Position numbers and translations under genes: made by a program. Below are positions 9,584 through 60,899 of a DNA stretch of 64,000 nucleotides, piece by piece (positions within the stretch are counted from its first letter, which is position 1; each line of letters begins with the position of its first letter). The stretch is from Halioglobus sp. (GTDB taxonomy: Bacteria; Pseudomonadota; Gammaproteobacteria; Pseudomonadales; Halieaceae). The DNA lies in NCBI GenBank assembly GCA_020443425.1, contig JAGRIE010000010.1:54528-118527 (forward strand), in the 5' to 3' direction. Below the pieces are notes generated by a model. That model searched no databases, had not been told where the DNA came from, and was given only the letters and a program-made list of their open reading frames with translations.

Positions 9584-10498
9584 ATGAATGTATTGGTCAC
9601 CGGTGGTACAGGGTTTATCGGGTCTCATGTATGTGATGCACTATTAAGGCGCGGGCACAATATCCGTGTGCTCAGTCGTAAGGCAGAGCCGTACCGACCC
9701 CCACTGCCCGGGGTAGATTATTTTCTCGGCGACATCGCCGATACGTTTTACCTCAGCGAAGCCCTCAGCGGCATGGACGCCGTCATCCACCTCGTCAGCA
9801 GCACCGTACCGGGAACGTCCAATCTCGACCCGGTAGCGGATATCAACTTCAATCTGGCTGGCACCGTGCGGATGCTGGAGTTGATGCGCCAGGCCGGGCC
9901 GAAACGCATCGTGTTTCTGTCTTCCGGTGGCACAGTGTATGGCGAGCCGTCGCGCCTTCCGGTCGCCGAGACCGAGCCCTTGAACCCGCTGTGTTCCTAT
10001 GGCGTGACCAAGGTTGCGATTGAGCACTACCTCGGCATGTACGCATTTCTTTACGGTATCGAGCCGGTTGTCCTGCGCGCATCCAACCCATTCGGCCCGC
10101 GCCAGGGGCGCCTCGGTATCCAGGGGCTGGTAGCGGCCTTTCTCAGTCGCATCCTTGCCGGCAAACCGCTCGTTGTCTGGGGTGACGGCGAGGTCATCAG
10201 GGATTATTTCTACGCCTCGGACCTGGCAGACCTGTGCGCGCTGGCCGTGGAGTCCACAGAAACGGGCATCTTCAATGCCGGCAGCGGCCAGGGCACGAGT
10301 ATCAACCGCATGATCGAACTGATCGGCAAAGCCACCGCTATCCAGCCGGAAGTGCACTACGAGCCACAGCGCAAATTCGACGTCAGGGAAACCTATCTGG
10401 ATATCAGCAAAGCGCGCACCGCATTCGGCTGGGAGCCGGTGGTCGACCTGGAGAGCGGTATCTCACAGCACTGGGACTGGTTGCGCAGCCTCAGTTGA
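9584..10498 (+). CDS. NAD-dependent epimerase/dehydratase
   Basis: About 304 residues starting MNVLVTGGTGFIGSHV, with the Rossmann GGTGFIGS and catalytic YGVTK near residue 139. It resembles the UDP-glucose 4-epimerase group and is distinct from the epimerase at 4448-5395. The ATG at 9584 is preceded by GGAGGT at ideal spacing; an upstream in-frame ATG at 9536 lacks this. It is transcribed away from the EPS operon and may provide another sugar precursor. The 270-base gap after it leads to the PEP-CTERM-type gene. Confidence 0.9.
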   Translation: MNVLVTGGTGFIGSHVCDALLRRGHNIRVLSRKAEPYRPPLPGVDYFLGDIADTFYLSEALSGMDAVIHLVSSTVPGTSNLDPVADINFNLAGTVRMLELMRQAGPKRIVFLSSGGTVYGEPSRLPVAETEPLNPLCSYGVTKVAIEHYLGMYAFLYGIEPVVLRASNPFGPRQGRLGIQGLVAAFLSRILAGKPLVVWGDGEVIRDYFYASDLADLCALAVESTETGIFNAGSGQGTSINRMIELIGKATAIQPEVHYEPQRKFDVRETYLDISKARTAFGWEPVVDLESGISQHWDWLRSLS

Positions 10499-41964: not shown

Positions 41965-42581
41965 ATCTCCGTCTCGTCTACCACAAAGGTATTCACCGCC
42001 ACCTGCCGGCGATAGCCTTCGTCGCCGTCGCTCACGCCGCCGCAGACATTTTCATCGTCTTCCAGCGCGTCAGCGGTATCGACCAGGCCGCGCCACTGGA
42101 TAATCACGCTGAGCTGGCCGGACCGGACACGAGGTGCGGCCGGCGTAAAGACGATACAGCCGCGCGGGCTGACCAGGCCATCAGCGCCCTCTCCCGCCAC
42201 GGTCGCAGTCTGGCCCTGCAGCGACTGCTCCCAGGCCCACAGATCGTGAGCCGCCAGTTGTGTCGGCGTACAGGGGCTGGATGAGCAGTTCGGTGAGGGC
42301 TCCGGACTGGGCTCACCGCTGGGTGAAGCAGGGCCGACGGGATTCAGGCCGATATTGTAGGTTGCGATGGCGGCAGGATTGATACGGATTCGCTCCACCA
42401 TTGCGTCCGCCAGCTCAACGGCGCGCGTCCGCTGCACGGCCTGGTGCTGGGACACCTTGGAATTCACCATCAGGCCAACCACACCCAGCAACCCGACGCT
42501 GAGAATCAGAAAAGCGACCAGCACCTCAAGCAGGGTGAAGCCGGACTGGCTGGAGACGGCGGATTTACTGACAGGAGACAT
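41961..42581 (-). CDS. pilV: minor pilin PilV
   Basis: About 206 residues from the ATG at 42581 (or the adjacent ATG at 42584). The prepilin site is QSG|FTLLEVLVAFLILSVGL with Glu5. The head includes a Pro/Ser-rich stretch near 85-100 and paired cysteines. It overlaps the fimT end by about 17 bases. A much longer in-frame start inside fimT is unlikely because it would give an overlong leader. Confidence 0.88.
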   Translation of the reverse strand: MSPVSKSAVSSQSGFTLLEVLVAFLILSVGLLGVVGLMVNSKVSQHQAVQRTRAVELADAMVERIRINPAAIATYNIGLNPVGPASPSGEPSPEPSPNCSSSPCTPTQLAAHDLWAWEQSLQGQTATVAGEGADGLVSPRGCIVFTPAAPRVRSGQLSVIIQWRGLVDTADALEDDENVCGGVSDGDEGYRRQVAVNTFVVDETEI

Positions 42582-43140
42582 CATTGCCGGTGTGATCCTG
42601 AACGATGTGCGTGGAATCCTCATCTTCCGATGGCACTGCGGCCCTGACAGCACCCACTGCGGTGACAATCAGCCCGCGGGCATCACCGGCACCGCGGTCG
42701 TCACAGAAGGTAAACGTCCCGTTGCTGCCAAGCGCCGTGCCGTTGCTGTCGAAGCGCAGGGTCGTGCCCGCCCCGACCTGGTTGTAACTGATGGCGATAC
42801 CCTGGGTGTTTTGCTCGCGGCTCTGCAGCAGTTGTTCATCGTTGTCGAGCTGGCCGTCGTTGTCCAGGTCGATGAAGGCCATGTAGCCCACGCCCCAGTC
42901 ACCAGAGCTGCAATCAATCGCATTGGCGCTGCGGCATACGGTCACGGTCGTGCGCTGCGTCTGCGCCTCTGAGCGCGCCGCGCTGAGGACGGTGCGCAGC
43001 GCGTAGTTTTCGGTCACCAGGCGATTGTTCTTGATCATCGCGCTGAAGGAGGGGACGCCCGCTGACAGCAGTACCGCCACGACGGCCAGCGTCACCATCA
43101 GTTCGATCAGCGTGAAGCCGCGACTTGTGTTCACTCTCAT
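42565..43140 (-). CDS. fimT: minor pseudopilin FimT/GspH
   Basis: A 191-residue prepilin. The leader MRVNTSRG is followed by FTLIELMVTLAVVAVLL with Glu5, then SFSAMIKNNRLVTENYALR and SAARSEAQ, typical of the FimT/GspH family. It is the first gene of the minor pilin operon. A GAGAGG site lies about 11 bases before the ATG. The 190 bases between this start and the c-di-GMP riboswitch form the expression platform. Confidence 0.9.
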   Translation of the reverse strand: MRVNTSRGFTLIELMVTLAVVAVLLSAGVPSFSAMIKNNRLVTENYALRTVLSAARSEAQTQRTTVTVCRSANAIDCSSGDWGVGYMAFIDLDNDGQLDNDEQLLQSREQNTQGIAISYNQVGAGTTLRFDSNGTALGSNGTFTFCDDRGAGDARGLIVTAVGAVRAAVPSEDEDSTHIVQDHTGNDVSCQ

Positions 43141-43330: not shown

Positions 43331-43415
43331 ATTCCGGCGGCCCCGCTGTCATCAGGCTTACGCCTCTTAGACCGGTTGCTTTGCGTCCCCACCTTTCAGT
43401 GGGTTTGCCTTTTTC
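43331..43415 (-). promoter_or_regulatory. cyclic-di-GMP-I (GEMM-I) riboswitch
   Basis: Read on the minus strand, the order of conserved parts matches GEMM-I: GGCAAACC, a hairpin CCCACU-GAAA-GGUGGG with a GNRA loop, GGACGCAAAGC, ACCGGUCUAA, a second hairpin AGGC-GUAA-GCCU, CAGCGGGG and a closing GCC. It lies about 190 bases ahead of fimT and is the only gene start it could control. c-di-GMP control of minor pilins fits the role of PilY1 in surface attachment. Confidence 0.92.
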
Positions 43416-43583
43416 AGAACTGACTTACTGTCACAGACTATGGCACCGGGCCACAGACAGTCAATGATATGCCGCCATGATATTTTCTGATATCGAGTTA
43501 TACGCCCAGGTTATATCAGGGCGGGTCTGCGGCGCCCGACTGCCGACGCCTGGCAGGGCGCGGGCGCCACCGGGCGCGGCTTG

Positions 43584-43954: not shown

Positions 43955-45208
43955 TCAGCCGCTACCGCTGGCGCCGACGAACTCGGGGTAGGCTTCCATA
44001 CCGCACTCAGCCATATCCACACCCTCGTACTCTTCCTGCTCGCTGACACGGATACCCATGACGGCTTTCAGGATGCCCCAGACGATCAGGCTGACCACGA
44101 ACACCCAGATGAAGATGGTCAGGGCGCCGATGATCTGGCCGCTGAAAGAGGATCCATCGTTGGTGACGGGTACCAGCAGCAGGCCCAGCAGACCGACAAC
44201 ACCGTGTACCGAGATCGCACCAACAGGGTCATCGATTTTCAGCTTGTCCAGGGTGACGATGGCGAATACCACCAGCACACCACCGATGACACCGAACAGG
44301 GTCGCCTGCAGGGGGCTCGGTGTCGACGGCTCAGCAGTGATGGCAACCAAGCCAGCCAGTGCGCCGTTGAGGGCCATCGTGAGGTCGGCTTTACCGAACA
44401 TCATGCGCGCCACAATCAGTGCGGCGATCAGGCCACCGGCCGCAGCCGCGTTGGTGTTCATGAACACCACTGCCACCGCGTTGGCACTTTCCACACTGGC
44501 TGTCGCCAGCACCGAGCCACCGTTGAATCCGAACCAGCCCAACCACAGTACAAAGGTACCCAGCGTTGCCATGGGAAGGTTGGCACCCGGGATCGGGCGG
44601 ACCGAGCCGTCAGCACCGTACTTGCCTTTTCGCGCGCCGAGCAGCAGTACACCTGCCAGAGCCGCGGCAGCACCTGCCATGTGGACGATGCCGGAGCCGG
44701 CGAAGTCAGAGAAGCCGAGGTCGCCCAGCGTGTACATGCCGAACACCGCTTCACCACCCCAGGTCCAGCTACCTTCCATCGGATAGATAAAGCCGGTCAT
44801 GACGATGGCGAATGTCAGGAAGGCCCACAACTTCATCCGCTCGGCAACCGCACCGGACACGATGGACATGGCTGTCGCCACGAAGACCACCTGGAAGAAG
44901 AAGTCAGCCGAGGGGGCGTAGGTTGCCGGCTCTTCCGCTCCAGCGACACCGTCAGCAACAATTCCCTGCAAAAACAGCGTAAAGTCGCCACCACCGTACA
45001 TGATGGAGTAACCGCAGATCATGTACATGGTACAGGCTACCGCGTACAGCGAAATGTTCTTGAGCAGGATCTCAGTCGTGTTTTTGGAACGCACCAGACC
45101 AGCTTCGAGCATTGCGAAGCCTGCTGCCATCCACATTACCAGCGCGCCACAGATCAGGAAATAAAACGTATCCAGGGCGTACTGTAGTTCAAAAATAGTG
45201 TTTTCCAT
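43955..45208 (-). CDS. amtB: ammonium transporter AmtB
   Basis: A 417-residue inner-membrane channel with eleven predicted membrane segments. DFAGSGIVHMAGAAAAL near 155 carries the conserved Asp and first pore His; AISVHGVVGLLG near 300 carries the second. The C-terminal cytoplasmic tail is where GlnK docks to close the channel. There is no strong cleavable signal. It is the last gene of the porin-glnK-amtB set, 33 bases after glnK. Confidence 0.95.
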   Translation of the reverse strand: MENTIFELQYALDTFYFLICGALVMWMAAGFAMLEAGLVRSKNTTEILLKNISLYAVACTMYMICGYSIMYGGGDFTLFLQGIVADGVAGAEEPATYAPSADFFFQVVFVATAMSIVSGAVAERMKLWAFLTFAIVMTGFIYPMEGSWTWGGEAVFGMYTLGDLGFSDFAGSGIVHMAGAAAALAGVLLLGARKGKYGADGSVRPIPGANLPMATLGTFVLWLGWFGFNGGSVLATASVESANAVAVVFMNTNAAAAGGLIAALIVARMMFGKADLTMALNGALAGLVAITAEPSTPSPLQATLFGVIGGVLVVFAIVTLDKLKIDDPVGAISVHGVVGLLGLLLVPVTNDGSSFSGQIIGALTIFIWVFVVSLIVWGILKAVMGIRVSEQEEYEGVDMAECGMEAYPEFVGASGSG

Positions 45209-45241
45209 GGGAATACTCTCTGCTAACAGTCGATTGGGGGT

Positions 45242-45640
<399 letters not shown>

Positions 45641-45643
45641 CTA

Positions 45644-46375
45644 TTACAGGCTCTTGCTGATTGAGAAGACCGCTGTGTCGTCGCAGTAGTTGCTGTTCCA
45701 GCAGTCGTCGTCATCGAGGTCGGTACCGACCCAGGCCACGGAGAAATCAACACCTTTGAAGGTGTAACCCAGGGTTACCGAGTAGTCGGTGTAGCTGTCC
45801 TCGTCTGTCGCGAAAAAGCCGACATCATCGAAGTCGTTGTAGCCCACGTGCAGGCCCAGCGAGAAGTCCTCGAGGAAGGACAGGCTGTAGTCACCTGAGT
45901 AGTACCAGTACTTGCCGGTCTTCGCGTAGAAGTCGTCCGAGTACACGATACCGATCGACAGGTCTTTCCAGGACGGTGTGATGTGGAACTCCTGGTAGTC
46001 ACCTTTGGGGTCAACGGTGTCACCGGGGTACTGGTAGTAGGCGTAGCCCACGTCTACCGCGAAGTCGGTATCACCGATAGGACCGGCCCAACCTGCGTAG
46101 TAGTCGATCTCCATGGTGCCCCAGCTACCTGTGTCGTTGTCGCTTCCGAAATCCACTGAGGAAGCCCAGGTGCCGACATAGATGCCCGGCTCAAAGGATG
46201 CATCGAAGCCGCCCTGAATTGCCGCATTGGTATCGGTTTGCGAAATACCGCGGAAGCGGTAGTCAGAAACCAGCGCGACGTTTGCGCTGATATCGAAGGC
46301 CTGTACTGACGCTGCTCCCATACCTGTCAGAAGGGCGGTGCTTACTGCTGCTGTAACCAGTTTCTTGTTTAACAT
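45644..46375 (-). CDS. TorF family putative porin
   Basis: A 243-residue outer-membrane protein. The signal peptide ends near AASVQA and the mature part begins FDISANVALVSDYRFRGISQT, the hallmark of the TorF/TIGR02001 family. Alternating aromatic strands run to the terminal SISKSL. Genes of this family recur beside glnK-amtB in marine gammaproteobacteria. It is first in the operon and directly downstream of the sigma-54 promoter, which suggests a role in uptake of a nitrogen compound; the solute is not known. Confidence 0.85.
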   Translation of the reverse strand: MLNKKLVTAAVSTALLTGMGAASVQAFDISANVALVSDYRFRGISQTDTNAAIQGGFDASFEPGIYVGTWASSVDFGSDNDTGSWGTMEIDYYAGWAGPIGDTDFAVDVGYAYYQYPGDTVDPKGDYQEFHITPSWKDLSIGIVYSDDFYAKTGKYWYYSGDYSLSFLEDFSLGLHVGYNDFDDVGFFATDEDSYTDYSVTLGYTFKGVDFSVAWVGTDLDDDDCWNSNYCDDTAVFSISKSL

Positions 46376-46482
46376 GTCTCTTTACTCCCGTGTGTTTTAA
46401 GTCAGAAAACAGACTCTGCAAAGCGTCAAATTATTGCTGCGGACGCATTTCGTGCGCATTACTAATCTGTCGCCTAGACATA

Positions 46483-46498
46483 GCAGAGTCTGTGCCAA
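46483..46498 (-). promoter_or_regulatory. sigma-54 promoter of the porin-glnK-amtB operon
   Basis: On the minus strand TTGGCACAGACTCTGC shows GG and GC exactly ten bases apart, matching the -24/-12 elements. Transcription would start near 46471, about 95 bases before the porin ATG. This is the expected promoter type for an NtrC-controlled glnK-amtB unit. Confidence 0.85.
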
Positions 46499-46575
46499 AT
46501 AGATTATTTTCTTTATATATCAATTACATGTGAATTATTGCCTGTTTTTTGTACTACAGTAGCCGGGGTATTTGT

Positions 46576-46592
46576 GGTTCCACTATGGTGCA
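46576..46592. promoter_or_regulatory. NtrC-like site, weaker copy
   Basis: The right half TGGTGCA is perfect; the left half GGTTCCA keeps four of seven bases of TGCACCA. Its centre is 18 bases from the neighbouring site, so two dimers could sit close together. Confidence 0.5.
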
Positions 46593-46593
46593 A

Positions 46594-46610
46594 TGCACCA
46601 GTTTTGTGCG
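46594..46610. promoter_or_regulatory. NtrC-like enhancer site
   Basis: TGCACCA-GTT-TTGTGCG has a perfect left half and five of seven right-half bases of the NtrC consensus TGCACCA-N3-TGGTGCA. It lies about 100-115 bases upstream of the sigma-54 element, a usual enhancer distance. Confidence 0.65.
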
Positions 46611-48857: not shown

Positions 48858-48898
48858 CTGCCACCCAGTGCTCGCCGCGGGCGGCGCACAGGCAGGGA

Positions 48899-48915
48899 TG
48901 CACCGAAATAGTGCA
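48899..48915. promoter_or_regulatory. NtrC-like enhancer site of the guanidine operon
   Basis: TGCACCG-AAA-TAGTGCA matches the NtrC consensus at six of seven bases in each half with the correct three-base spacer. It lies about 110 bases upstream of the sigma-54 element. Confidence 0.78.
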
Positions 48916-49011
48916 CAACACCGTCTCCAGCGCTGTGCTTTCGCGTCCAGCCTACCCCTGAAGTACACGCGGAATATTTTCCCTCCTTTTAAAACAAGGG
49001 CTGCGAGCTTG

Positions 49012-49027
49012 TTGGCATAGTGCTTGC
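49012..49027 (+). promoter_or_regulatory. sigma-54 promoter of the guanidine operon
   Basis: TTGGCATAGTGCTTGC keeps GG and GC ten bases apart and the TTGC of the -12 element. Transcription would begin near 49039, so the RNA would start just ahead of the leader segment GCGAGAGATCCC. Confidence 0.82.
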
Positions 49028-49042
49028 TTTTCCTTGGGCAGT

Positions 49043-49225
49043 GCGAGAGATCCCCCTGCTGGTGTGGCCGGGGGTCAGGAACACAAGCCCAATAGATATC
49101 TAGGGTTCCGGTCGCAGCGGCCTGTCGCCGCTGCGATGACTGGACCGAGAGTTATCGACCTCCTCTGGCAGGGGGTTACACGGAGGGATAAAAGCCCGGG
49201 AGAACGCGTAAGCGGGATCTCTCGC
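49043..49225 (+). other. long-range stem enclosing the guanidine-I aptamer
   Basis: GCGAGAGATCCC (49043-49054) is perfectly complementary to GGGATCTCTCGC (49214-49225), and two more pairs extend it outward. The 5' strand can alternatively pair through CCCCCTGC (49052-49059) with GCAGGGGG (49168-49175) inside the aptamer. The two pairings exclude each other, which suits a switching platform. The regulatory role is inference. Confidence 0.55.
49098..49207 (+). promoter_or_regulatory. guanidine-I (ykkC) riboswitch
   Basis: The conserved blocks of the ykkC aptamer occur in order: ATCTAGGGTTCCG, a GC-rich hairpin (GTCGCAGCGG with CCGCTGCGAT), GACTGGACCGAGAG, a second hairpin (ACCTCC with GGGGGT), then TACACGGAGGGATAAAAGCC and CGGGAGA. 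The aptamer binds guanidinium. It sits directly before the guanidine ABC transporter and carboxylase genes, a known type of target. Confidence 0.95.
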
Positions 49226-49262
49226 GCGCCCAGCTACTGTGCAACTCTTTGGAGGAGTTTTT

Positions 49263-50255
49263 ATGAACATCGCAACTACATTCAGAAAACTGGTTAAACC
49301 ACTCGCCGCGACCCTCGCGGCGGCAACACTCAGTCTCGCCGCGCAGGCGGCGGAGCCGCTGAAAATCGGCTACAGCGACTGGCCTGGCTGGGTGGCCTGG
49401 GAAGTGGCGATAGAAAAGGAGTGGTTCAAGGACGCCGGCGTCGATGTTGAATTCGAGTGGTTCGACTACGTCGCCTCCATGGACGCGTTTGCCGCCGGCA
49501 AGCTGGACGCGGTGACCATGACCAACGGCGACGCCCTGGTGACCGGTGCCTCCGGCGCCCAGAGCGTGATGATCCTGGTCAACGACTTCAGCAACGGCAA
49601 CGACATGATAGTGGCCAGTCCCGGCATCACCTCGGTCGCCGAACTGAAGGGCAAAACCATCGGTGTGGAAGTGGGTTTTGTCGGCCACCTCCTGCTGCTG
49701 AACGCACTGGAAGCCGCCGGCCTGTCGGAGAGTGACGTCACGCTGGTCAACGTACCCACCAATGAGACACCCCAGGTGCTGGCCTCCGGTGATGTCGACG
49801 CCATTGTCGCCTGGCAACCCAGTTCCGGACAGGCCCTGTCGCAGGTGCCGGGCTCAACAGCCATCGCCACCTCCCGCGACGCGCCCGGCCTGATCTACGA
49901 TGTACTGGCCGTCAGCCCCGCCTCGCTGGCCACGCGCAAAGCCGATTGGGAAAAAGTGGCAACTGTCTGGTACAAGGCCGTGGATTACATCTATGGCGAG
50001 GAAACGCAGGCCGATGCACTGTCTATCATGGCGGCCCGGGTCGGTATTCCCGCCGACCAGTACAAGGCCATTCTCGATGGCACCAAAATCCTCAGCCTCG
50101 AAGAGTCGCAGGCAGTCATGCAAAAGGGTGAGGGCATGAAGTCACTGTATGGCTCGAGCAAGATCTCGGACGATTTCAATGTGAAGTACGAAGTCTATGC
50201 CGAGCCGCAGGCCATCGACACCTATATCGACCCTTCCATCATACTGGGGATGTAA
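49263..50255 (+). CDS. guanidine/urea-region ABC transporter, substrate-binding protein
   Basis: A 330-residue periplasmic protein of the NitT/TauT-like family found beside urea/guanidine carboxylases. The signal peptide ends AAQAAEP; the mature part begins [35 protein letters not shown] and ATEIPQV-like [16 protein letters not shown] stretches are family features. It probably binds guanidinium or a related compound. GGAGG lies nine bases before the ATG; an in-frame start at 49239 would overlap that site. Confidence 0.88.
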
Positions 50256-50271
50256 GCACACCCGACTGGAG

Positions 50272-50287
50272 CCCCGCGCGAGCGGGG
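50272..50287 (+). other. intercistronic GNRA-capped hairpin
   Basis: CCCCGC-GCGA-GCGGGG is a perfect 6-bp GC stem with a GNRA tetraloop, 17 bases after the binding-protein stop. Such stems commonly protect the upstream mRNA so that the binding protein is made in excess over the permease. No T-tract follows. Confidence 0.7.
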
Positions 50288-50318
50288 TAAACAGACTGAG
50301 ACAAACAAGGGTTTTCAC

Positions 50319-51287
50319 ATGTCGCAATCACCACGGTGGTTTGCTGTACGGCAGGCCTTGACCAAAAAACAGGTCACCACCCTCACATTACTGTCATTCT
50401 TTCTGCCGATATTGCTGTGGTCACTGGTCAGCTATGTGCCATTCCTGTGGCACCCGAAAGTAGAGATTGTGGAGTCGGGTTCCATCACCTGGCTCAAGCC
50501 CGGTATGCTGGTCGACCAGGAGGTGTTCGCCGAGCAGCAGCGCCTGGCCACAGAGCAGGAGTCTGCGCTACCTCAGGGCACCGGGGCAAACCCGATCTAC
50601 CTGCCGGCGCCGCACGAAGTGGCCATCGCGTTCTATGCCGCCTTCGCGACCGAACCGACGCGCAGCAGTGAGCAGTGGCTGCACGAGAGCCTGTGGCACA
50701 GCATACAGATCATATTCTGGGGCTTCACCCTGTCGTCACTGATCGGTGTGCCGCTGGGGGTGCTGTGCGGCACCTATGTCGCTATCTCGCGGCTGCATGA
50801 GCCATTTATCGAGTTCTTCCGCTACCTGCCGGCGCCGGCGTTCGGCGCACTGGCGGTCGCCATACTGGGTATTCACGACGGGCCCAAGATAGCGATTATC
50901 TTCATCGGCACATTTTTCCAGCAGGTGCTCATCATCGCCAACACCACCCGCAAGCTGGACGTTGCCCTGGTGGAGGCGGCACTGACGCTGGGGGCGAAAA
51001 AATTCCAGCTGCTGTTCCGCGTGGTGATACCGGGCATCCTGCCGGACCTGTACCGGGACCAGAGAATCCTGCTCGGCTGGGCCTGGACCTACCTGATTGT
51101 CGCCGAGTTGATCGGCACCAGTTCGGGCATCACCTGGTTTATCACCCAGCAGGCCCGCTACAAGAACTTCGATAACGTCTACGCCGCCATCATCATGATC
51201 GGCATCATCGGTGTAGTGTCAGACATCTTGCTGGCCAAACTCGGCAAGCGTCTGTTTCCCTGGGAAAAAGAACAGGTAAAGGCCTGA
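50319..51287 (+). CDS. ABC transporter permease of the guanidine region
   Basis: A 322-residue inner-membrane permease of the BPD_transp_1 family. The first membrane segment is near residues 22-45, then a long periplasmic stretch to about 125, followed by five more segments. The EAA loop appears as [21 protein letters not shown] near 220. The extended first periplasmic loop (about 80 residues) is typical of permeases beside urea/guanidine carboxylase. It pairs with the ATPase that starts 4 bases later. Confidence 0.9.
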
Positions 51288-51291
51288 GCCA

Positions 51292-52200
51292 ATGACTACG
51301 ATAGAACTCCCCAGCTACCTGGACAAAAGCGAAGCGGTAAGCGCCCGTTTCGAGAAACTGAAACAGCGCGAGGTGATACTGGAAGTCAAACACCTCGGCA
51401 AGCAGTTCAACTCGCAACAGGGCCCGGTAACCGCACTCAAGGATATCAACTTCAAGACCCACCGGCGCGAATTCGTCTGCGTTATCGGCCCCTCCGGTTG
51501 CGGCAAGTCCACCCTGATCAGGATTCTGGCAGGGCTGGAGTCGCCGAGCAGCGGTGAGGTCCTGCTGGACAACAAGCCCGTGTTTGAACCCGGTCCCGAC
51601 CGGGGCATGGTGTTCCAGGGCTACACGCTGTTCCCCTGGCTGAGCGTCAAGGAGAATGTGATGTTTGGCCTGCAGATGCAGGGCGCCACCAAGGCCACGG
51701 CCGAGAGCGAGGCGCTGAACTGGATAGAGCTGGTGGGACTGGAACGCTTTGCGGACGCCTATCCCCACCAGCTGTCCGGCGGTATGAAGCAGCGCGTCGC
51801 CATCGCCAGGGCGCTGGCGAACAAGCCGCGGATACTGCTGATGGACGAACCCTTCGGGGCGCTCGATGCACAGACGCGCAGCAAGATGCAGGCGAACCTG
51901 ATCGAGATCTGGCGCAATATCGATATCACGGTGTTATTCATCACCCACGACCTGGACGAGGCCATCTACCTGGCCGATCGCATCCTGGTGCTGAAGGCCA
52001 ACCCGGGTGAGGTGGAGGAACTGATCGAGGTTTCCGTGCCCCGCCCAAGGCACAGCGGCCAGATCATCTCCCCGGAATTCCTCGCCACCAAGAAGCGCCT
52101 GGAAGAACTGATCCATCCGCCATCCGAGGAGGACGAGGCCGATGGCCTGCACATGATTCGCATGGCACACGTTGGCGATGACGTAGAGGTTATGGAATAA
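51292..52200 (+). CDS. ABC transporter ATP-binding protein of the guanidine region
   Basis: A 302-residue NitT/TauT-type ATPase. Walker A is GPSGCGKST near residue 65, the signature [15 protein letters not shown] near 160, and Walker [12 protein letters not shown] near 180, with the H-loop in [11 protein letters not shown]-terminal extension of about 45 residues ends the chain. It energises the permease encoded just upstream. Confidence 0.93.
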
Positions 52201-52472: not shown

Positions 52473-53195
52473 ATGAAAGATACGATTCACTATCAGGACA
52501 CAATTTCGGGCGGCTGCCACTGGTCAGTGGTGATGAAGAAGGGCCTGACCCTGAGATTGATTGACAAGGAGGGCGGCGCCAATGTCGGCATGCTCTTCTA
52601 CAACCCGGAGAACCTGCTGGAGCGCTACAACGCACCCGACACACTCAAGTGCCAGCACACATTCAAGCTGACCCGCGGCAACTGCCTGTACTCGGATATG
52701 GGTCGCGTGTTCTGTTCCATTGTCGAGGACACCGCTGGCTGGCACGACACCGTGTGCGGCAACACCACCAAAAAAATCGTCAGGCAGAAGTGGGGGGAGC
52801 GAAACTACCAGGAGTATCGCAATGACTGGCAGCTGAACGGTTACGACTCGTTCCTGGTCGAGGTCGCAAAATACGGCCTGGGTAAAAAGGACCTCGCCGC
52901 GAATCTCAACCTGTTCAGCAAGGTCACCGTCGACACGCAGGGCAATCTGGCATTCGACGCCAGCGCCGCGCGGGCCGGAAGCTTCATCGACCTGCGCTTT
53001 GAAATGGACACCCTGGTGGTGCTGCACACCTGTCCCCACCCGCTGAACCCGGCCGCAGAGTACCCCCGCAAGCCGATCAGCTTCCAGATACGGACCAGCG
53101 AGGGCATCGCGGAGGATGACGACTGCAGGAACCACTGCCCGGAAAACCAGCGCGGCTTCCTGAACACTGAACTGTACACGCTGGGCCGCGCCTGA
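52473..53195 (+). CDS. cgdA: DUF1989 carboxyguanidine deiminase subunit (UAAP1)
   Basis: A 240-residue protein formerly called urea amidolyase-associated protein 1. GANVGMLFYNPENLLERYN near 34, TLKCQHTF, and CGNTTKK carry conserved polar and metal-ligand residues of DUF1989. With its partner it is reported to convert carboxyguanidine to allophanate and ammonia. The subunit letter follows gene order and is not certain. The ATG at 52473 follows GGAGACAGG. Confidence 0.82.
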   Translation: MKDTIHYQDTISGGCHWSVVMKKGLTLRLIDKEGGANVGMLFYNPENLLERYNAPDTLKCQHTFKLTRGNCLYSDMGRVFCSIVEDTAGWHDTVCGNTTKKIVRQKWGERNYQEYRNDWQLNGYDSFLVEVAKYGLGKKDLAANLNLFSKVTVDTQGNLAFDASAARAGSFIDLRFEMDTLVVLHTCPHPLNPAAEYPRKPISFQIRTSEGIAEDDDCRNHCPENQRGFLNTELYTLGRA

Positions 53196-53228: not shown

Positions 53229-53867
53229 ATGATAAAAGAGAGTGTGATGCAGCCAGAACAGGCGGTTTACCGCGAAGTGGTAAAAGCCGGCGACTACTAC
53301 CTGCGGCCGATGAAACAGGGCCAGACCATTCGCATCCTGGACCTCGAGGGCAACCAGGCCGCCGACACCCTGTTCTACAACGCACACGATACCAGCGAGC
53401 GCTACAGCGCCATCGATACCATTCGCGAACAGGGCAATGTCTATCTCACGGCCGGCTCCATGCTGCTGAGCAACGAGGGCAACCCGATGCTGGAGATTGT
53501 CGCCGACACCTGCGGACGCCACGACACCCTCGGTGGCGCCTGCGCCACCGAGTCCAACACGGTGCGCTACGCACTGGAGAAGCGCTGTATGCACGCCTGC
53601 CGCGACTCCTGGCTGCTCGCTGTCGCAGAGCATGAGGAGTTCGGCATGAGCAAGCGCGACATCACCCACAACATCAATTTTTTTATGAACGTGCCGGTGA
53701 CCCCGGAGGGTGGACTGACCTTTGCCGACGGTATCAGCGACGCCGGCAAGTATGTCGAACTGACCGCAGCCATGGATATCCTCGTGCTGGTCTCCAACTG
53801 CCCACAACTGAATAACCCCTGCAATGCCTACAACCCCACTCCGATTGAAATTCTGATCTGGGACTGA
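53229..53867 (+). CDS. cgdB: DUF1989 carboxyguanidine deiminase subunit (UAAP2)
   Basis: A 212-residue homologue of the preceding protein. It has [20 protein letters not shown] near 35, [14 protein letters not shown] near 92, and [12 protein letters not shown] with a cluster of cysteines and histidines, consistent with a bound metal. The [10 protein letters not shown] stretch is shared with the family. It would act as a heteromer with UAAP1. The gap to the previous gene is 33 bases and to the carboxylase 25 bases. Confidence 0.82.
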
Positions 53868-53892: not shown

Positions 53893-56800
53893 ATGTTCAG
53901 CAAAATACTCATCGCGAATCGCGGCGCCATCGCCACGCGAATTATCCGAACCCTGAGACGCCTCGGCGTGCAGTCTGTCGCGGTCTACAACGAAGCGGAT
54001 GCGCAGTCCCTGCATGTACAGCACGCCGATATCGCCATCAATCTCGGCGCGGGCAGTGCGGCCGACACCTACCTGGACATGGACAAGGTGCTGCAGGCAG
54101 CGCGCGACTGCGGTGCCGAGGCGATACACCCGGGTTATGGCTTCCTCAGTGAGAACACTGAATTTGTCGCCCGCTGTGAGGCACAGGGGCTGGTGTTCAT
54201 CGGCCCGACCACCGCTCAGATGGAACTGTTCGGCTTGAAACACCAGGCGCGCGATGCCGCCGAGCGCGCCGGTGTACCACTGGTGCCTGGCTCACCGCTG
54301 TTGCAGAACCTTGACGACGCCCTCGCCTGGGCGGCAGACGTGGGCTATCCGGTGATGCTGAAAAGCACGGCTGGCGGGGGCGGCATCGGCATGCAGGTCT
54401 GCACCGGTGACGGGGTACTGCGCTCGGCGTGGGACAGCGTCAAGCGCCTGGGGGCAAACTACTTCGCCAACGACGGTGTCTTCCTGGAGAAGTACATCGC
54501 CAACGCCCGCCACATCGAAGTGCAGGTTTTCGGCGACGGCTGCGGTGCGGCGATCGCACTGGGTGAACGCGACTGTTCCGCGCAGCGCCGCAACCAGAAG
54601 GTCATCGAGGAAACGCCGGCACCAAACCTGCCCGACGCCGCGCGCCAAAACCTGCACGCGACGGCAGAGCGCCTGATGGCCTCAGTGCAATACCGCAATG
54701 CCGGTACCGTGGAGTTCATCTACGATGCCGACAGCCAGCAGTTCTACTTCCTGGAGGTGAACACCCGGTTGCAGGTCGAGCACGGTGTCAGCGAGGAGGT
54801 GTGGGGCGTCGACCTGGTCGAGTGGATGCTGCAACAGGCGGCGGGGGAGCTGGCCGACCTCGACACACTGAAGGCGTCGCTGTCACCGCGCGGTCACGCC
54901 ATCCAGGTTCGCGTATACGCGGAGGACCCGGCGCAGGACTTCCGTCCCTCCGCGGGCCTGCTGTCACAGGTCAGCTGGCCGCAGGCAGACGGCCTGCGCA
55001 TCGATCACTGGATTGAATCCGGCATCGAGGTGCCGGCGCTGTTCGACCCGATGCTCGCCAAGGTCATCGTGCACGGTGTCGATCGCGGCGCGGCGCTGGC
55101 GCAATTGTCACAGGCGCTGGCCGACAGCGAGATTTACGGCATCGAAACCAATCTGGCCTACCTGCAGGCCGTCCTGCGCGGCGACGCCTGCCAGCGCGGC
55201 AAACTGCTGACGCGGACACTCGCCGAGTTCGATTTTTCACCCGCCACCGTACAGGTGTTGGTGGCCGGCACACAGACCACAGTGCAGGACTTTCCCGGCC
55301 GGGTCGGCCTGTGGCACGTCGGCGTGCCGCCCTCGGGCCCGATGGATTCCCTGTCCTTTCGGCTCGCCAACCGGCTGCTGCAAAACCGCACCGACGCCGC
55401 AGCACTGGAGATCACCCTGAACGGCCCGACACTGCGCTTCAACTGTGCCACGCAAATCGCCCTGACCGGTGCGACGATCGAGGCCAGCCTGGACGGCGCG
55501 CCACTGGCGCCGTTCACGGTGACAGAGGTGCAGGCCGGCCAGGTACTGGCGCTGGGCAAAGTGACGGGGCACGGGGCACGCGCCTACCTGGCCGTGGCCG
55601 GAGGTTTCCAGTGTCCCGACTACCTCGGCTCAAAGTCCACGTTCACACTCGGTCAGTTCGGCGGCCATGTGGGCCGCGCGCTGCGGGTCGCCGACGTGCT
55701 GCACCTCGCACCCCACAGCGGGTCGGCAGGGGTCGACGCGGCGGTGCTGCCAGCGGCACTCCGACCCGACATCGGCAACAGCTGGACACTGCGGGTCATC
55801 TACGGGCCGCACGGGGCGCCGGACTTTTTCACCGACGGTGACATCGACACATTTTTCAGTACCGAGTGGGAGGTGCACTACAACTCCAGCCGCACCGGCG
55901 TGCGCCTGAAAGGCCCCAAACCGCAGTGGGCACGCGAGACCGGCGGCGAGGCGGGACTGCACCCCTCCAATATCCACGACAACGCGTATGCGTTCGGCAC
56001 CGTGGATTTCACCGGCGATATGCCGGTAATCCTCGGCCCCGACGGCCCCTCGCTCGGCGGCTTCGTCTGTCCCGCAACGGTCATCACCGCCGACCTGTGG
56101 AAGCTCGGCCAGTTGCAGGCCGGGGCCACGCTGCGCTTCGAGCCGGTGAGCTACGAGCAGGCGGTCACGCTTGAGGCCGAGCAACTTGCGTACATTGAGC
56201 AGTTGCAGGCGCCGGGCCACCGCGCCAGCGTACCCTGTGTGCCGGATTCTCCGATTGTGCACCACACGGCTATCGACGGGGATGACGTCGTCTGCAGGCT
56301 CGCCGGCGATCACTTCCTGCTGATCGAACTGGGTCCACAGGAACTGGATATTGAGCGCCGCTTCAAGGTGCATGCGCTGATGCTCTGGTTTGAAAGCAAC
56401 CCGCTAACCGGCATCCGCGAGTTGACCCCGGGTATACGCTCCCTGCAGATTCACTATGACTCCCAGCAGCTGACGCTGGCGCAGTTACTGCGTCACATCG
56501 ACCTGGCGGCGACAGCACTGCTGCAGGGCAGCGAAGTCTCCGTCCCCTCGCGCATCGTGCACCTGCCACTGAGCTGGGATGACGAGGCCTGTCGCGAGGC
56601 GATCCAGAAATACATGCAGTCGGTGCGCCCCGGCGCGCCGTGGTGTCCCAGCAATCTCGAGTTCATCCGCCGCATCAATGGCCTCGACGATATCGACGCG
56701 GTGAAAGAGATCGTGTTCGCAGCCTCCTACCTGGTGATGGGGCTGGGCGATGTCTACCTCGGCGCCCCGGTCGCGACACCACTGGACCCCCGGCACCGCC

Positions 56801-57522
56801 TGGTCACCACCAAGTACAATCCGGCGCGCACCTGGACGGCGGAGAATTCCGTGGGTATCGGCGGCGCCTATCTGTGCGTCTACGGCATGGAGGGGCCGGG
56901 CGGCTACCAGTTTGTCGGTCGCACGCTGCAGATGTGGAACCGCTACCGGCAGACCGAGGCCTTCACCCGGCCCTGGCTGCTGCGCTTCTTTGACCAGATA
57001 CGCTTCTATCCCGTCAGTGCTACGGAATTGCAACAGATACGGCGCGACTTCCCGCTGGGCAACTATCCGCTGAAGATCGAGGAGACACGTTTCAACCTCG
57101 CCGAATACCAGCAATTCCTGCAACAGCACAGTAGCGAGATCAACCGCTTCGAGTGCGGCCGGCGAGCCGCATTCGCCGAGGAGCTGGCGCAGTGGAAGCG
57201 CGATGGCCAGCTCACCTACGAGCAGGAGGAGGGCTCCCCCGAGGAGGCCGACGAAGAACGATTACCCGAGGGCGTTGCGGCACTGGACAGCCCCGTGTCC
57301 GGCAATGTCTGGAAAGTGATGGTAGAGGACGACCGCGTGGTGACAGCGGGCGAGGTCGTCATGATCCTTGAATCCATGAAGATGGAAATTGAAATCCACG
57401 CACCACAGTCCGGCAGCATCAGGAAAATCCTGCGCCAGCAGGGCCAGTCCGTCACCGCGGGTCAAACCCTGCTGTGGCTGGAGGAGTCTGCCGGGGTAGC
57501 ATCGAGTGAAGGAGAGCACTGA
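53893..57522 (+). CDS. biotin-dependent guanidine (urea-type) carboxylase
   Basis: A 1209-residue single-chain enzyme. The biotin carboxylase domain (1-450) has the ATP-grasp glycine loop STAGGGGIGMQVC near 157 and EVNTRLQVEHGVSE near 290. A KipI/KipA-like carboxyltransferase domain spans about 455-1090. The C-terminal biotin carrier domain carries the biotinyl lysine in ESMKMEI near 1163. Homologues are named urea carboxylase, but those under guanidine riboswitches prefer guanidine, and the context here argues for that. Direct proof needs kinetics. Confidence 0.92.
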   Translation: MFSKILIANRGAIATRIIRTLRRLGVQSVAVYNEADAQSLHVQHADIAINLGAGSAADTYLDMDKVLQAARDCGAEAIHPGYGFLSENTEFVARCEAQGLVFIGPTTAQMELFGLKHQARDAAERAGVPLVPGSPLLQNLDDALAWAADVGYPVMLKSTAGGGGIGMQVCTGDGVLRSAWDSVKRLGANYFANDGVFLEKYIANARHIEVQVFGDGCGAAIALGERDCSAQRRNQKVIEETPAPNLPDAARQNLHATAERLMASVQYRNAGTVEFIYDADSQQFYFLEVNTRLQVEHGVSEEVWGVDLVEWMLQQAAGELADLDTLKASLSPRGHAIQVRVYAEDPAQDFRPSAGLLSQVSWPQADGLRIDHWIESGIEVPALFDPMLAKVIVHGVDRGAALAQLSQALADSEIYGIETNLAYLQAVLRGDACQRGKLLTRTLAEFDFSPATVQVLVAGTQTTVQDFPGRVGLWHVGVPPSGPMDSLSFRLANRLLQNRTDAAALEITLNGPTLRFNCATQIALTGATIEASLDGAPLAPFTVTEVQAGQVLALGKVTGHGARAYLAVAGGFQCPDYLGSKSTFTLGQFGGHVGRALRVADVLHLAPHSGSAGVDAAVLPAALRPDIGNSWTLRVIYGPHGAPDFFTDGDIDTFFSTEWEVHYNSSRTGVRLKGPKPQWARETGGEAGLHPSNIHDNAYAFGTVDFTGDMPVILGPDGPSLGGFVCPATVITADLWKLGQLQAGATLRFEPVSYEQAVTLEAEQLAYIEQLQAPGHRASVPCVPDSPIVHHTAIDGDDVVCRLAGDHFLLIELGPQELDIERRFKVHALMLWFESNPLTGIRELTPGIRSLQIHYDSQQLTLAQLLRHIDLAATALLQGSEVSVPSRIVHLPLSWDDEACREAIQKYMQSVRPGAPWCPSNLEFIRRINGLDDIDAVKEIVFAASYLVMGLGDVYLGAPVATPLDPRHRLVTTKYNPARTWTAENSVGIGGAYLCVYGMEGPGGYQFVGRTLQMWNRYRQTEAFTRPWLLRFFDQIRFYPVSATELQQIRRDFPLGNYPLKIEETRFNLAEYQQFLQQHSSEINRFECGRRAAFAEELAQWKRDGQLTYEQEEGSPEEADEERLPEGVAALDSPVSGNVWKVMVEDDRVVTAGEVVMILESMKMEIEIHAPQSGSIRKILRQQGQSVTAGQTLLWLEESAGVASSEGEH

Positions 57523-57525
57523 GCA

Positions 57526-59331
57526 ATGAGCAGCAGCCCCAATGAAGTCCACAACCTCAGCCTGCAGGCGCTGAAGAGCGCCTATAGCAGCGGCGGCATA
57601 ACACCCAGGGAACTGATCGGCCAATTGTCGGCACAGGCGCGCCGGCAGGATGAATACAACGCCTGGATTTACCTGTTGAGCGATGCCGAACTCGAACCCT
57701 ACCTGAGCGCGCTGGAGCAGCGGGACCCGGCGAGCCTGCCACTCTACGGCGTACCCTTTGCAATCAAGGACAACATCGACCTGGCCGGCATCCCCACCAC
57801 CGCCGCCTGCCCGGACTTTGCCTACACACCCACCGAACACGCCGCTGTCGTCAGCACCCTGATAGCCGCCGGCGCTGTGCCACTGGGGAAGACCAACCTC
57901 GACCAGTTCGCCACCGGCCTGGTGGGCACCCGCTCGCCCTACGGTGAGGGCAAGAACAGTTTTAATACCGACTATATCTCTGGCGGCAGCAGCGCCGGCT
58001 CGGCGATTGCCACGGCGCTCGGACAGGTGGCGTTTGCACTGGGCACGGACACCGCGGGTTCCGGGCGCGTACCCGCAGTGCTGAACAACCTGGTCGGCCA
58101 CAAGCCCACCCGGGGGCTGCTGAGCACCCGCGGCGTGGTGCCGGCCTGCCGCACCCTGGACTGCGTCAGCATATTCGCGCTCAGCTGCGACGATGCGGCG
58201 GTGTTGCTGGACATCGCCGCCCGCTACGACGCCGCAGACCCCTACGCACGGCCCAATACGTTCTACAACCGCCAGCGCTATTTCGACACAGCAGCGGCCG
58301 CGCCCTTTCGCTTCGGGGTGCCGTCATCACTGGATTTCCAGGGCGACAGCGAAACGCAGGCGCTGTTTGAGGACAGCGTCCGGCGCCTGGAGCGACTGGG
58401 CGGCGAAGCGGTTGCGGTGGCGTTCGAGCCCTTTCTGGAAACCGCCAGGCTGCTGTACGAGGGGCCGTGGGTGAGCGAGCGCTGGCTGGCGACACAGGGC
58501 GTCGACCGCGCCTCCATGCTGCCGGTCATCCGGGAGATCATCGCCGGTGCCGAGGGCAAAACGGCAGCGGATGCCTTTGCCGCACAGTACCGGCTGGCCG
58601 ACCTGAAACGCCGCTGTGACGCAGCACTACAGGGACTGGACTTCGTTCTGACCCCGACCTGCCCGCGATTCTACACTCGCGCAGAAATGGCCGCGCAGCC
58701 GATCGCAAACAACTCGCTGCTCGGCACCTACACCAATTTCATGAACCTGCTGGACTACAGCGCCACCGCGGTGCCGGTGGGTTTCACCGAGTGCGGTGTG
58801 CCGTGGGGCGTGACGCTGTTTACTGCGGCGTTTGACGATATCCGCCTGCTCGGTCTCGCCGGATTACTGCACCGCGATTGCGAGCTGCCACTGGGGGCGA
58901 CCGGCCTCACACCGCCCCCGCCGGCCAGCGGCACCGCCCCGGCGGTGGCACAGGCCATTGACGTGGTGGTGTGCGGTGCCCACCTTGAGGGACAGCCGCT
59001 GAACTGGCAGCTCACGGAGCGCGATGCACGGTTGCTGCAGAAGACCACCAGCTCACCGCACTACCAGCTGTACGCCCTGCCCGACGGCAAGCGACCCGCC
59101 ATGGTGCGCGACGAGGAACAGGGTGTCGCCATCGAGGTGGAGGTGTGGTCCATGCCACACAGTCACTTCGGCAGCTTTGTCGCCGGCATTCCGGCACCAC
59201 TGGGAATCGGCAAGGTGGAACTGGCCGACGGGCGCTGGCTCAGCGGCTTTATCTGCGACGGTTTCGGCCTCACCGGCGCCAGCAACATCAGCGACTACGG
59301 CAGCTGGCGCAACTGGCTGAACGCCCGGTAG
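57526..59331 (+). CDS. atzF: allophanate hydrolase
   Basis: A 601-residue amidase-signature enzyme that hydrolyses allophanate to ammonia and CO2, the last step of the pathway. The Ser-cisSer-Lys triad is seen as Lys in FAIKDNID near 83, GGSSAGSAIA near 155, and the nucleophile region GTDTAGSGRVPA near 175. The C-terminal domain (about 480-601, with GIGKVELADGRWLSGFICDG) is typical of bacterial AtzF/DUR1-type proteins. It starts 3 bases after the carboxylase stop. Confidence 0.94.
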   Translation: MSSSPNEVHNLSLQALKSAYSSGGITPRELIGQLSAQARRQDEYNAWIYLLSDAELEPYLSALEQRDPASLPLYGVPFAIKDNIDLAGIPTTAACPDFAYTPTEHAAVVSTLIAAGAVPLGKTNLDQFATGLVGTRSPYGEGKNSFNTDYISGGSSAGSAIATALGQVAFALGTDTAGSGRVPAVLNNLVGHKPTRGLLSTRGVVPACRTLDCVSIFALSCDDAAVLLDIAARYDAADPYARPNTFYNRQRYFDTAAAAPFRFGVPSSLDFQGDSETQALFEDSVRRLERLGGEAVAVAFEPFLETARLLYEGPWVSERWLATQGVDRASMLPVIREIIAGAEGKTAADAFAAQYRLADLKRRCDAALQGLDFVLTPTCPRFYTRAEMAAQPIANNSLLGTYTNFMNLLDYSATAVPVGFTECGVPWGVTLFTAAFDDIRLLGLAGLLHRDCELPLGATGLTPPPPASGTAPAVAQAIDVVVCGAHLEGQPLNWQLTERDARLLQKTTSSPHYQLYALPDGKRPAMVRDEEQGVAIEVEVWSMPHSHFGSFVAGIPAPLGIGKVELADGRWLSGFICDGFGLTGASNISDYGSWRNWLNAR

Positions 59332-59399: not shown

Positions 59400-59524
59400 G
59401 GGTGCCGGCCCTTTCGCGGCCAGGCCGCTTGTGCCACAATTTTGGCCTCAGGACTCTACAAGCTACTAGTTATTAGTTAGTATTGCTGCAGCCAAATACT
59501 ATAACGCGACCCTCGGAGAAACCC

Positions 59525-60781: not shown

Positions 60782-60872
60782 ACTCCCCGTTCAGGCGCGC
60801 TCCCTTTTACCAGCCGGCGGCAAAGAGCGGTAGATATTTGTCGCTGACTGATCTACTCTTCGCCTAGCCATA

Positions 60873-60878
60873 TATAAT
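60873..60878 (+). promoter_or_regulatory. perfect -10 box ahead of DUF1329 gene
   Basis: TATAAT occurs 21 bases before the ATG at 60900. No good -35 hexamer is seen at the usual distance. If used, the leader would be very short, just covering the GGAG site. Confidence 0.4.
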
Positions 60879-60899
60879 AGCTAAATTGGAGCCGACATA

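What the first reader, a model, noticed from the sequence alone, without database searches (positions are those of the whole stretch)
48899..49207. Guanidine operon under three-layer control: NtrC, sigma-54 and guanidine-I riboswitch
An NtrC-like palindrome, a sigma-54 element with exact -24/-12 spacing and a complete ykkC aptamer stand in series before a full guanidine-use operon. ykkC control of such operons is known; combining it with a nitrogen-starvation promoter would give an AND gate: low nitrogen plus guanidine present. I do not recall this exact layout being described in this group.
Basis: partly seen in the sequence, partly recalled or inferred. Interest (0 to 1): 0.8.

Follow-up and report, generated by a model that had tools for sequence, protein, structure and literature searches.

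The report
Nitrogen-starvation promoter feeding a guanidine riboswitch
A bacterium appears to read its guanidine-eating genes through a nitrogen-starvation promoter followed by a guanidine-sensing RNA switch; this pairing turns out to be common among related bacteria, and the RNA carries an extra long-range helix, made by its first letters, that may act as a latch.

Summary
The window has a full guanidine-I (ykkC) aptamer (RF00442, 87.5 bits, 49089-49204), a sigma-54 element with exact spacing (49012-49028) and an 11/12 NtrC-like palindrome (48899-48915). They precede a guanidine import and guanidine carboxylase operon; rpoN and ntrC are in the genome. NtrC and sigma-54 form one layer, so this is a two-input gate: low nitrogen AND guanidine.

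It is not special to this genome. In a survey of its class, 32 of 38 detected guanidine-I aptamers had a sigma-54-like element within 160 nt upstream (background 3.3%). Sigma-54 prediction for such genes and NtrC dependence of one Burkholderia cluster are in print; my searches showed no paper joining them to the riboswitch.

The first transcribed letters (49041-49053) can pair with a strand after the aptamer (49215-49227), enclosing it ("P0"). Across 87 non-redundant leaders own partners pair far better than swapped ones (0 of 20,000 permutations). Published structural work calls P0 absent from guanidine-I riboswitches. Folding suggests an ON-state latch competing with an OFF fold that hides the ribosome-binding site. 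Function is inferred; nothing was tested at the bench.

The parts
48899..48915 (+). NtrC-like palindrome TGCACC-N5-AGTGCA, starting 113 nt upstream of the sigma-54 element
   Evidence: 11 of 12 consensus letters, only site of that quality in the window; sites of 10 or more of 12 upstream of 54 of 157 sigma-54/aptamer leaders against 1.3% in Markov controls
49012..49028 (+). sigma-54 promoter element (-24 GG 49014-49015, -12 GC 49026-49027)
   Evidence: score 17.3 on my recalled matrix; kept upstream of most aptamers in relatives (155 of 189)
49039..49039 (+). predicted transcription start
   Evidence: 12 nt after the C of the -12 GC; not mapped
49041..49053 (+). 5' strand of the long-range helix P0
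   Evidence: 12-bp perfect complement 49043-49054 / 49214-49225; 0 of 20,000 Markov sequence pairs reach 12
49089..49204 (+). guanidine-I (ykkC) riboswitch aptamer
   Evidence: RF00442 87.5 bits, full length
49215..49227 (+). 3' strand of P0; part of it (49218-49224) is also the 3' arm of the competing hairpin 49197-49203/49218-49224
   Evidence: folds; own against swapped partner test
49237..49251 (+). anti-aptamer stretch (CTGTG 49237-49241 with CACGG 49179-49183; AACTCTTTG 49243-49251 with CAGGGGGTT 49169-49177) in the predicted OFF fold
   Evidence: an element of this kind is enriched in other leaders, but the window's own copy has only 7 Watson-Crick pairs and so falls under the 8-of-10 line used there
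49251..49257 (+). Shine-Dalgarno GGAGGAG; 49252-49256 pairs 49161-49165 in the predicted OFF fold
49263..50255 (+). ABC substrate-binding protein (NMT1-like; SsuA/TauA-like NCBIfam matches below curated cut-offs)
50319..51287 (+). ABC permease
   Evidence: matches below curated cut-offs
51292..52200 (+). ABC ATPase
   Evidence: matches below curated cut-offs
52473..53195 (+). urea amidolyase associated protein UAAP1 (PF09347; likely carboxyguanidine deiminase subunit)
   Evidence: TIGR03425 337.8 bits, cut-off 205.95; PF09347 211.3 bits; start at the internal ATG is my choice, the ORF is listed from TTG 52362
53229..53867 (+). UAAP2 (likely second deiminase subunit)
   Evidence: TIGR03424 341.3 bits, cut-off 284.7
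53893..57522 (+). guanidine carboxylase (urea carboxylase family)
   Evidence: TIGR02712 1811.6 bits; D705 opposite K. lactis N1330 and D opposite D1584, positions counted by me in the alignment
57526..59331 (+). allophanate hydrolase
   Evidence: TIGR02713 754.8 bits

Best explanation
This is a two-input control region for guanidine use as a nitrogen source. In nitrogen starvation, phosphorylated NtrC bound at 48899-48915 activates sigma-54 polymerase at 49012-49028, and transcription starts near 49039. The leader then tests for guanidine. Without it, the RNA falls into an OFF fold: the aptamer's 3' tail pairs with the strand after it (49197-49203/49218-49224), CACGG and the GGGGGTT arm pair within 49237-49251, and the freed TCCTC arm covers the Shine-Dalgarno. 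With guanidine, the aptamer holds P1, P2 and P3, and the strand after it is captured by the transcript's first letters (P0, 49041-49053/49215-49227), which keeps the OFF fold apart so that the operon is translated. Shown: the sequence elements, their conservation, and P0 pairing by comparison. Inferred: NtrC as the activator, the start site, the ON/OFF assignment and translational (rather than Rho- or terminator-based) control. Rough odds: sigma-54/NtrC promoter 0.9; guanidine-I switch 0.97; P0 is a real helix 0.9; P0 is an ON latch 0.6; translational control 0.6.
For: Aptamer RF00442 87.5 bits. rpoN 499.9 bits and ntrC 754.4 bits over cut-off in the genome. Operon is guanidine-type: D705 where K. 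lactis urea carboxylase has N1330, the rule given in PMC11410670 (passage). Sigma-54-like element upstream of 155 of 189 aptamers, 32 of 38 in the class survey, background 3.3%. NtrC-like sites of 10/12 or more in 54 of 157 leaders, control 1.3%. P0: 87 non-redundant leaders, own partner 29.49 against swapped 20.42, 0 of 20,000 permutations; three control region pairs give 20.24/19.32, 15.81/15.26 and 20.11/18.99. In one hand-picked clade of 20 leaders, P0 is 96.4% paired (39-49% when slid), 5 pairs and 19 cells change on both sides (shuffled means 1.8 and 5.4; 0 of 500). Window P0 is 12 bp perfect; 0 of 20,000 Markov pairs reach 12. Forcing the aptamer in the window moves P0 probability from 0.18 to 1.00 and Shine-Dalgarno openness from 0.11 to 0.47 at a cost of 3.0 kcal/mol. 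No terminator-like site and no sigma-70-like promoter in 48860-49300.
Against: In the window's near relatives (9 leaders picked from 15 printed) P0 is conserved (87.6% paired, 21-58% when slid) but shows no covariation above shuffles (292 of 500); one row (L056) looks shifted by a base to me. In the clade of 20 the number of further pair types is not above shuffles (97 of 500), and the structure was read from those same rows, which favours it over slid versions. In folds of 85 leaders, forcing the aptamer raises P0 by more than 0.1 in only 39 and opens the Shine-Dalgarno by more than 0.1 in 48 but closes it in 8. Leaders of the permease and UAAP1 classes show no P0 excess (4162 and 7480 of 20,000). 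23 aptamers with a weak or no sigma-54 element (not reduced for redundancy) still show own-partner excess (27.05 against 21.54, 0 of 5000), so P0 is not tied to sigma-54. When the 5' strand was sought from 60 nt upstream of the start, best matches began at -7 to +9 in only 16 of 30, 41 of 89, 4 of 13 and 6 of 13 leaders of the four classes. The window's own anti-aptamer match is below the line used. The sigma-54 matrix and NtrC consensus are from my memory.
Confidence: 0.68

Rival explanations
1. Ordinary guanidine-I ON switch on a sigma-54 promoter; the 5'/3' complementarity is an mRNA-stability feature (5' end protection) with no part in switching.
For: P0 pairing also appears at aptamers with weak sigma-54 elements; 46 of 85 folds show no rise of P0 above 0.1 when the aptamer is forced.
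Against: The P0 3' strand overlaps the strand that pairs with the conserved aptamer tail in the OFF fold, so the two are mutually exclusive; the first letters show no comparable excess against a region 60-110 nt after the aptamer (20.11 against 18.99).
Confidence: 0.25
2. Transcriptional rather than translational control: the hairpin 49197-49203/49218-49224 stops transcription through Rho or an unusual terminator.
For: Guanidine-I is usually described as a transcriptional switch (review PMC12186494, part 1 of section 4 read); 9 of 183 leaders have terminator-like hairpins with a T run.
Against: No terminator-like site in the window leader, and my scan found none in the other 174 of 183.
Confidence: 0.3
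3. A sigma-70 promoter drives the operon and the -24/-12 match is chance.
For: Single-site odds are poor: 2 hits where 1.21 are expected.
Against: Sigma-54-like element upstream of 155 of 189 aptamers, NtrC-site enrichment, no sigma-70-like site in the region.
Confidence: 0.04
4. Another sigma-54 activator, not NtrC, works at this promoter.
For: The genome holds seven further long matches to the NtrC model, below its cut-off, besides the ntrC itself.
Against: The palindrome fits the NtrC consensus as I recall it, and a sigma-54 element with NtrC-like sites also stands before the P-II/ammonium transporter genes in the window; a Burkholderia cluster of the same kind falls in an ntrC mutant (PMC5491218, passages).
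Confidence: 0.08

Closest known systems
Guanidine-I (ykkC subtype 1) riboswitch, RF00442
   Same: Complete aptamer over the full model, in front of guanidine import and carboxylase genes
   Different: Leader starts with a strand that can pair across the aptamer (P0); no terminator-like site in the window; promoter is sigma-54 type
PRPP/ppGpp ykkC subtypes with P0 (PMC6031431; abstract and passages seen)
   Same: A helix made by the two ends of the aptamer region that takes part in the expression platform
   Different: Per the paper that P0 is formed by the aptamer's own ends and contacts the ligand; here the 5' strand ends about 40 nt upstream of P1 and the best Rfam match is Guanidine-I
NtrC/sigma-54 nitrogen promoters (glnA, glnK-amtB type; recalled)
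   Same: NtrC-like palindrome about 110 nt upstream of a -24/-12 element; a similar set before the P-II/ammonium transporter genes in this window
   Different: The transcript is gated again by a metabolite riboswitch
Burkholderia cenocepacia H111 cluster I35_7282-7286 (PMC5491218; passages seen)
   Same: Genes of the same kind, NtrC dependent (urea carboxylase log2 -6.0 in the ntrC mutant)
   Different: The text has no occurrence of 'riboswitch'; I did not look at its leader
Tandem riboswitch logic gates (PMC5912903; start of abstract seen in the listing)
   Same: Two inputs combined in one leader
   Different: Here one input is a promoter and the other an RNA switch

Membership tests
Guanidine-I riboswitch (RF00442) | Score above the curated threshold over the full model | tested here: met
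   87.5 bits, gathering 63, positions 1-107
Guanidine-I riboswitch (RF00442) | Binds guanidine | not testable with these tools
   needs in-line probing; gene context fits
Sigma-54 promoter | GG-N10-GC with TGGCAY and TTGCW context (recalled) | tested here: met
   49012-49028, score 17.3
Sigma-54 promoter | RpoN present; expression depends on RpoN | tested here: inconclusive
   rpoN present; dependence not testable
NtrC regulon | NtrC-type palindrome some 70-150 nt upstream (recalled) and ntrC in the genome | tested here: met
NtrC regulon | Binding and activation by NtrC in nitrogen starvation | not testable with these tools
   bench test needed
Guanidine carboxylase (against urea carboxylase) | Asp at K. 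lactis 1330 and Asp at 1584 (rule from PMC11410670) | tested here: met
   query D705 opposite N1330; Asp opposite D1584 (positions counted by me)
ykkC subtype with P0 (PRPP/ppGpp) | P0 formed directly by the aptamer ends | tested here: not met
   P0 strands lie outside the aptamer; the only Rfam match is Guanidine-I. It may work like a P0 platform without being a member
ykkC subtype with P0 (PRPP/ppGpp) | Pocket letters that differ from guanidine-I | not tested
   the paper's diagnostic positions were not mapped onto the window
Terminator-type guanidine-I ON switch | Intrinsic terminator after the aptamer | tested here: not met
   0 terminator-like sites in 48860-49300

The most novel reading that the evidence does not exclude
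Proteobacterial guanidine-I riboswitches carry an unrecognised long-range P0 helix whose 5' strand is the very beginning of the transcript, most often one laid down by a sigma-54 promoter. The transcript's first letters serve as a latch for the ON state, so start-site choice and ligand switching have evolved together in a widespread nitrogen AND guanidine gate.
Probability: 0.5. Interest if true: 0.66.

Novelty: new variant of a known kind. Interest (0 to 1): 0.58.

Why it matters
It gives guanidine use a clear place in nitrogen regulation: cells would spend on guanidine import only when nitrogen is short and guanidine is there. The pairing is found over much of the class sampled, so it bears on the open question of when guanidine is a nutrient and when a toxin. 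The P0 helix, if confirmed, revises the stated anatomy of guanidine-I riboswitches and offers a simple, testable case of a riboswitch whose switching strand is the transcript's own 5' end.

Tried and rejected
Covariation inside the window's near relatives (9 leaders) gave conservation but no signal above shuffles; I rely on the wider set. A MAFFT alignment of 36 of the 63 leaders listed did not align the P0 strands and was not used for counting. The counted clade (20 leaders) was picked by me because the 5' strands looked alike; 21 were listed and L139 was left out. A second clade alignment (15 of 18 listed) was made but not counted. P0 as a strict partner of sigma-54 was rejected because aptamers with weak sigma-54 elements show it too. 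A fold script whose constraint was not applied was replaced. An aptamer pattern that missed many loci was replaced. Searches use the older set of 183 aptamers, whose pattern missed the loci from outside the class that I had listed; one search uses 204, with 2 dropped for short upstream sequence and 9 fetched loci without a detected aptamer (L185, L189, L194, L231, L241, L263, L271, L274, L279). 'First gene' in these counts means the best tblastn match within 900 nt after the aptamer. A UAAP1 search in phages and a carboxylase search in plasmids gave nothing that bears on the mechanism. I did not look for a guanidine-I leader at the B. cenocepacia cluster.

Full report
What is there. The window holds, in this order on the + strand, an NtrC-like palindrome (48899-48915), a sigma-54 element (49012-49028), a predicted start near 49039, a full guanidine-I aptamer (49089-49204; 87.5 bits, gathering 63), a Shine-Dalgarno (49251-49257) and an ATG at 49263. 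The genes that follow are an ABC importer (49263-52200), UAAP1 and UAAP2, a urea-carboxylase-family enzyme and allophanate hydrolase. The carboxylase carries Asp705 opposite K. lactis Asn1330 and keeps the Asp at 1584 (positions counted by me), which by the rule in PMC11410670 (passages seen) marks a guanidine carboxylase. The genome has one rpoN match and one ntrC match over the curated cut-offs and one guanidine-I aptamer.

Chance. Single motifs are weak evidence: the sigma-54 pattern occurs twice where 1.21 are expected, and the NtrC pattern with up to 2 mismatches 9 times where 6.29 are expected. The other sigma-54 hit (46482-46497, - strand) lies upstream of a Gcw_chp protein, a P-II protein and an ammonium transporter with NtrC-like sites at 46576 (9/12) and 46594 (10/12), which looks like a classical nitrogen promoter and is a useful internal comparison.

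Comparison. RF00442 matches were sought in 57 relatives (11 with a match), 369 genomes of the class (31), 390 of the order (116) and 397 of the phylum (49); these sets overlap. 80 named loci came from a search with the substrate-binding protein (best 80 of 551 kept). From all fetched loci I detected 204 distinct aptamers; 2 were dropped for short upstream sequence. Inside the class or of unknown group, 155 of 189 have a sigma-54-like element of score 12 or more within 160 nt upstream (166 at 10 or more); by the best-matching gene within 900 nt: substrate-binding protein of the window's type 33 of 35, a second type 86 of 102, permease 13 of 13, ATPase 1 of 1, UAAP1 15 of 29, carboxylase 0 of 1, allophanate hydrolase 1 of 1, other 6 of 7. 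Outside the class it is 8 of 13. Random 160-nt windows reach 12 in 3.3% of 6000. In the class survey alone, drawn without regard to the promoter, it is 32 of 38 detected aptamers; one search lists 40 matches there. The matrix is approximate and recalled. NtrC-like sites of 10 or more of 12 letters stand 30-200 nt upstream of the element in 54 of 157 leaders against 1.3% in Markov sequences (9 or more: 110 of 157 against 9.6%).

Because NtrC is the activator that a sigma-54 promoter needs, the design has two inputs, not three layers.

The P0 helix. A perfect 12-bp inverted repeat, GCGAGAGATCCC 49043-49054 and GGGATCTCTCGC 49214-49225, encloses the aptamer; 0 of 20,000 Markov pairs reach 12 bp. 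For 145 leaders with a sigma-54-like element (score 10 or more, at least 40 nt before the aptamer) I compared the first transcribed letters with the strand after the aptamer; against shuffled leaders p was 0.05 or less in 19 of 30 (window's binding-protein type), 70 of 89 (second type), 6 of 13 (permease) and 3 of 13 (UAAP1). Reduced to 87 non-redundant leaders, own partners score 29.49 and swapped partners 20.42; 0 of 20,000 permutations reach the own score. Three control region pairs give 20.24/19.32, 15.81/15.26 and 20.11/18.99 (436, 1286 and 84 of 20,000), so a small composition effect exists but is about a tenth of the signal. Split by gene, the window's type (22) and the second type (51) each give 0 of 20,000, while permease (8) and UAAP1 (6) leaders give no excess (4162 and 7480). 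In a clade of 20 leaders, picked by me, the 11-pair helix is 96.4% paired, 39-49% when slid by 1-3 columns, with 5 pairs and 19 cells changed on both sides (shuffled means 1.8 and 5.4, 0 of 500 each); the number of further pair types is not above shuffles (97 of 500). In a near group of 9 that includes the window, it is 87.6% paired against 21-58% when slid, but without covariation above shuffles (292 of 500). 23 aptamers with weak sigma-54 elements show the excess too (27.05 against 21.54, 0 of 5000), for example L109 by eye, so P0 seems to belong to the riboswitch rather than to the promoter type. When the 5' strand was sought from 60 nt upstream of the predicted start, best matches began between -7 and +9 in 16 of 30, 41 of 89, 4 of 13 and 6 of 13 leaders of the four classes.

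How it may work. In the unconstrained fold of 49039-49282 (-100.1 kcal/mol) the aptamer tail CGGGAGA 49197-49203 pairs TCTCTCG 49218-49224, CACGG 49179-49183 pairs CTGTG 49237-49241, CAGGGGGTT 49169-49177 pairs AACTCTTTG 49243-49251, and TCCTC 49161-49165 pairs GAGGA 49252-49256 of the Shine-Dalgarno. With the aptamer pairs forced (-98.1) P0 forms over 13 bp (49041-49053/49215-49227), P2 forms, and the Shine-Dalgarno is left in a short local hairpin (49243-49249/49253-49259), so it is freed only in part. In 29 leaders, forcing the aptamer moved the median P0 probability from 0.04 to 0.79 and left the Shine-Dalgarno more open in 19 (by more than 0.2 in 11). In a wider set of 85 (2 failed) the picture is weaker: P0 rises by more than 0.1 in 39, the tail hairpin falls in 35, the Shine-Dalgarno opens in 48 and closes in 8; median P0 goes from 0.01 to 0.16. 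A downstream match of 8 or more of 10 Watson-Crick pairs to the aptamer's GGUUACACGG is found in 46 of 183, controls 1.5-4.2% in the four larger gene classes; the window's own has 7 plus wobbles. Terminator-like hairpins are found in 9 of 183 and not in the window. I therefore favour a translational ON switch with P0 as latch, at about 0.6, and leave transcriptional control open.

What is known. The review PMC12186494 (part 1 of section 4 and passages seen) describes guanidine-I as usually a transcriptional ON switch; 'sigma' does not occur in it and the listing counts no 'NtrC' in it. PMC6031431 (abstract and passages seen; [quoted passage not shown] PMC5491218 (passages) lists urea carboxylase (log2 -6.0) and neighbouring genes as NtrC dependent in Burkholderia cenocepacia H111. 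[quoted passage not shown] that COG3665 is the UAAP family is recalled. Full-text searches for guanidine with riboswitch and sigma-54, NtrC, RpoN, sigma54 or nitrogen starvation, and related sets showed no title or abstract start that joins the two; some listings were capped (20 of 91, 20 of 56), I opened only the papers named here and PMC12508155, PMC11410670 and PMC12403871 by term search, and only openly licensed papers are held, so this is not proof of absence.

Verdict.

Noticed in passing
43333-43419 (- strand): c-di-GMP-I riboswitch (RF01051, 85.1 bits) upstream of a GspH-type pseudopilin gene 42565-43140 (PF12019) on the same strand.
   Followed up: partly
43955-46610 (- strand): Ammonium transporter (TIGR03644), P-II protein (NF007946) and Gcw_chp protein genes behind a sigma-54-like element (46482-46498) with NtrC-like sites at 46576-46592 and 46594-46610.
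   Followed up: partly
L114, L117, L123: Guanidine-I aptamers head to head: in L114 and L117 one faces a substrate-binding protein gene and one an ORF that reads to me like a ureohydrolase (no family search), all four with sigma-54-like elements; L123 looks alike.
   Followed up: no
L038, L043, L049, L051 (second aptamer near 10000-10150): A second guanidine-I aptamer inside the operon before UAAP1, without a sigma-54-like element.
   Followed up: partly
L159, L173, L175, L270, L272, L273, L275, L278: In these 8 of 13 loci from outside the class the sigma-54-like element lies only 21-23 nt before the aptamer core, so the transcript would start almost at P1, with no room for P0.
   Followed up: partly
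leaders: Distances between NtrC-like sites (10/12 or more) and the sigma-54 element seem to bunch about a helical turn apart (67-70, 78-81, 90-94, 99-100, 108-115, 122-125 nt); seen by eye, not tested, and some loci are close kin.
   Followed up: no
59483-62267 (+ strand): A cytochrome P450 gene (PF00067) and a DUF1329 gene (PF07044) follow the guanidine operon; whether they belong to it is open.
   Followed up: no
phage records CAKLQH020000001.1 and CAKLQF020000001.1: Two records of 328,530 and 378,590 bases labelled Acinetobacter phage hold UAAP genes; possibly mislabelled bacterial contigs.
   Followed up: no
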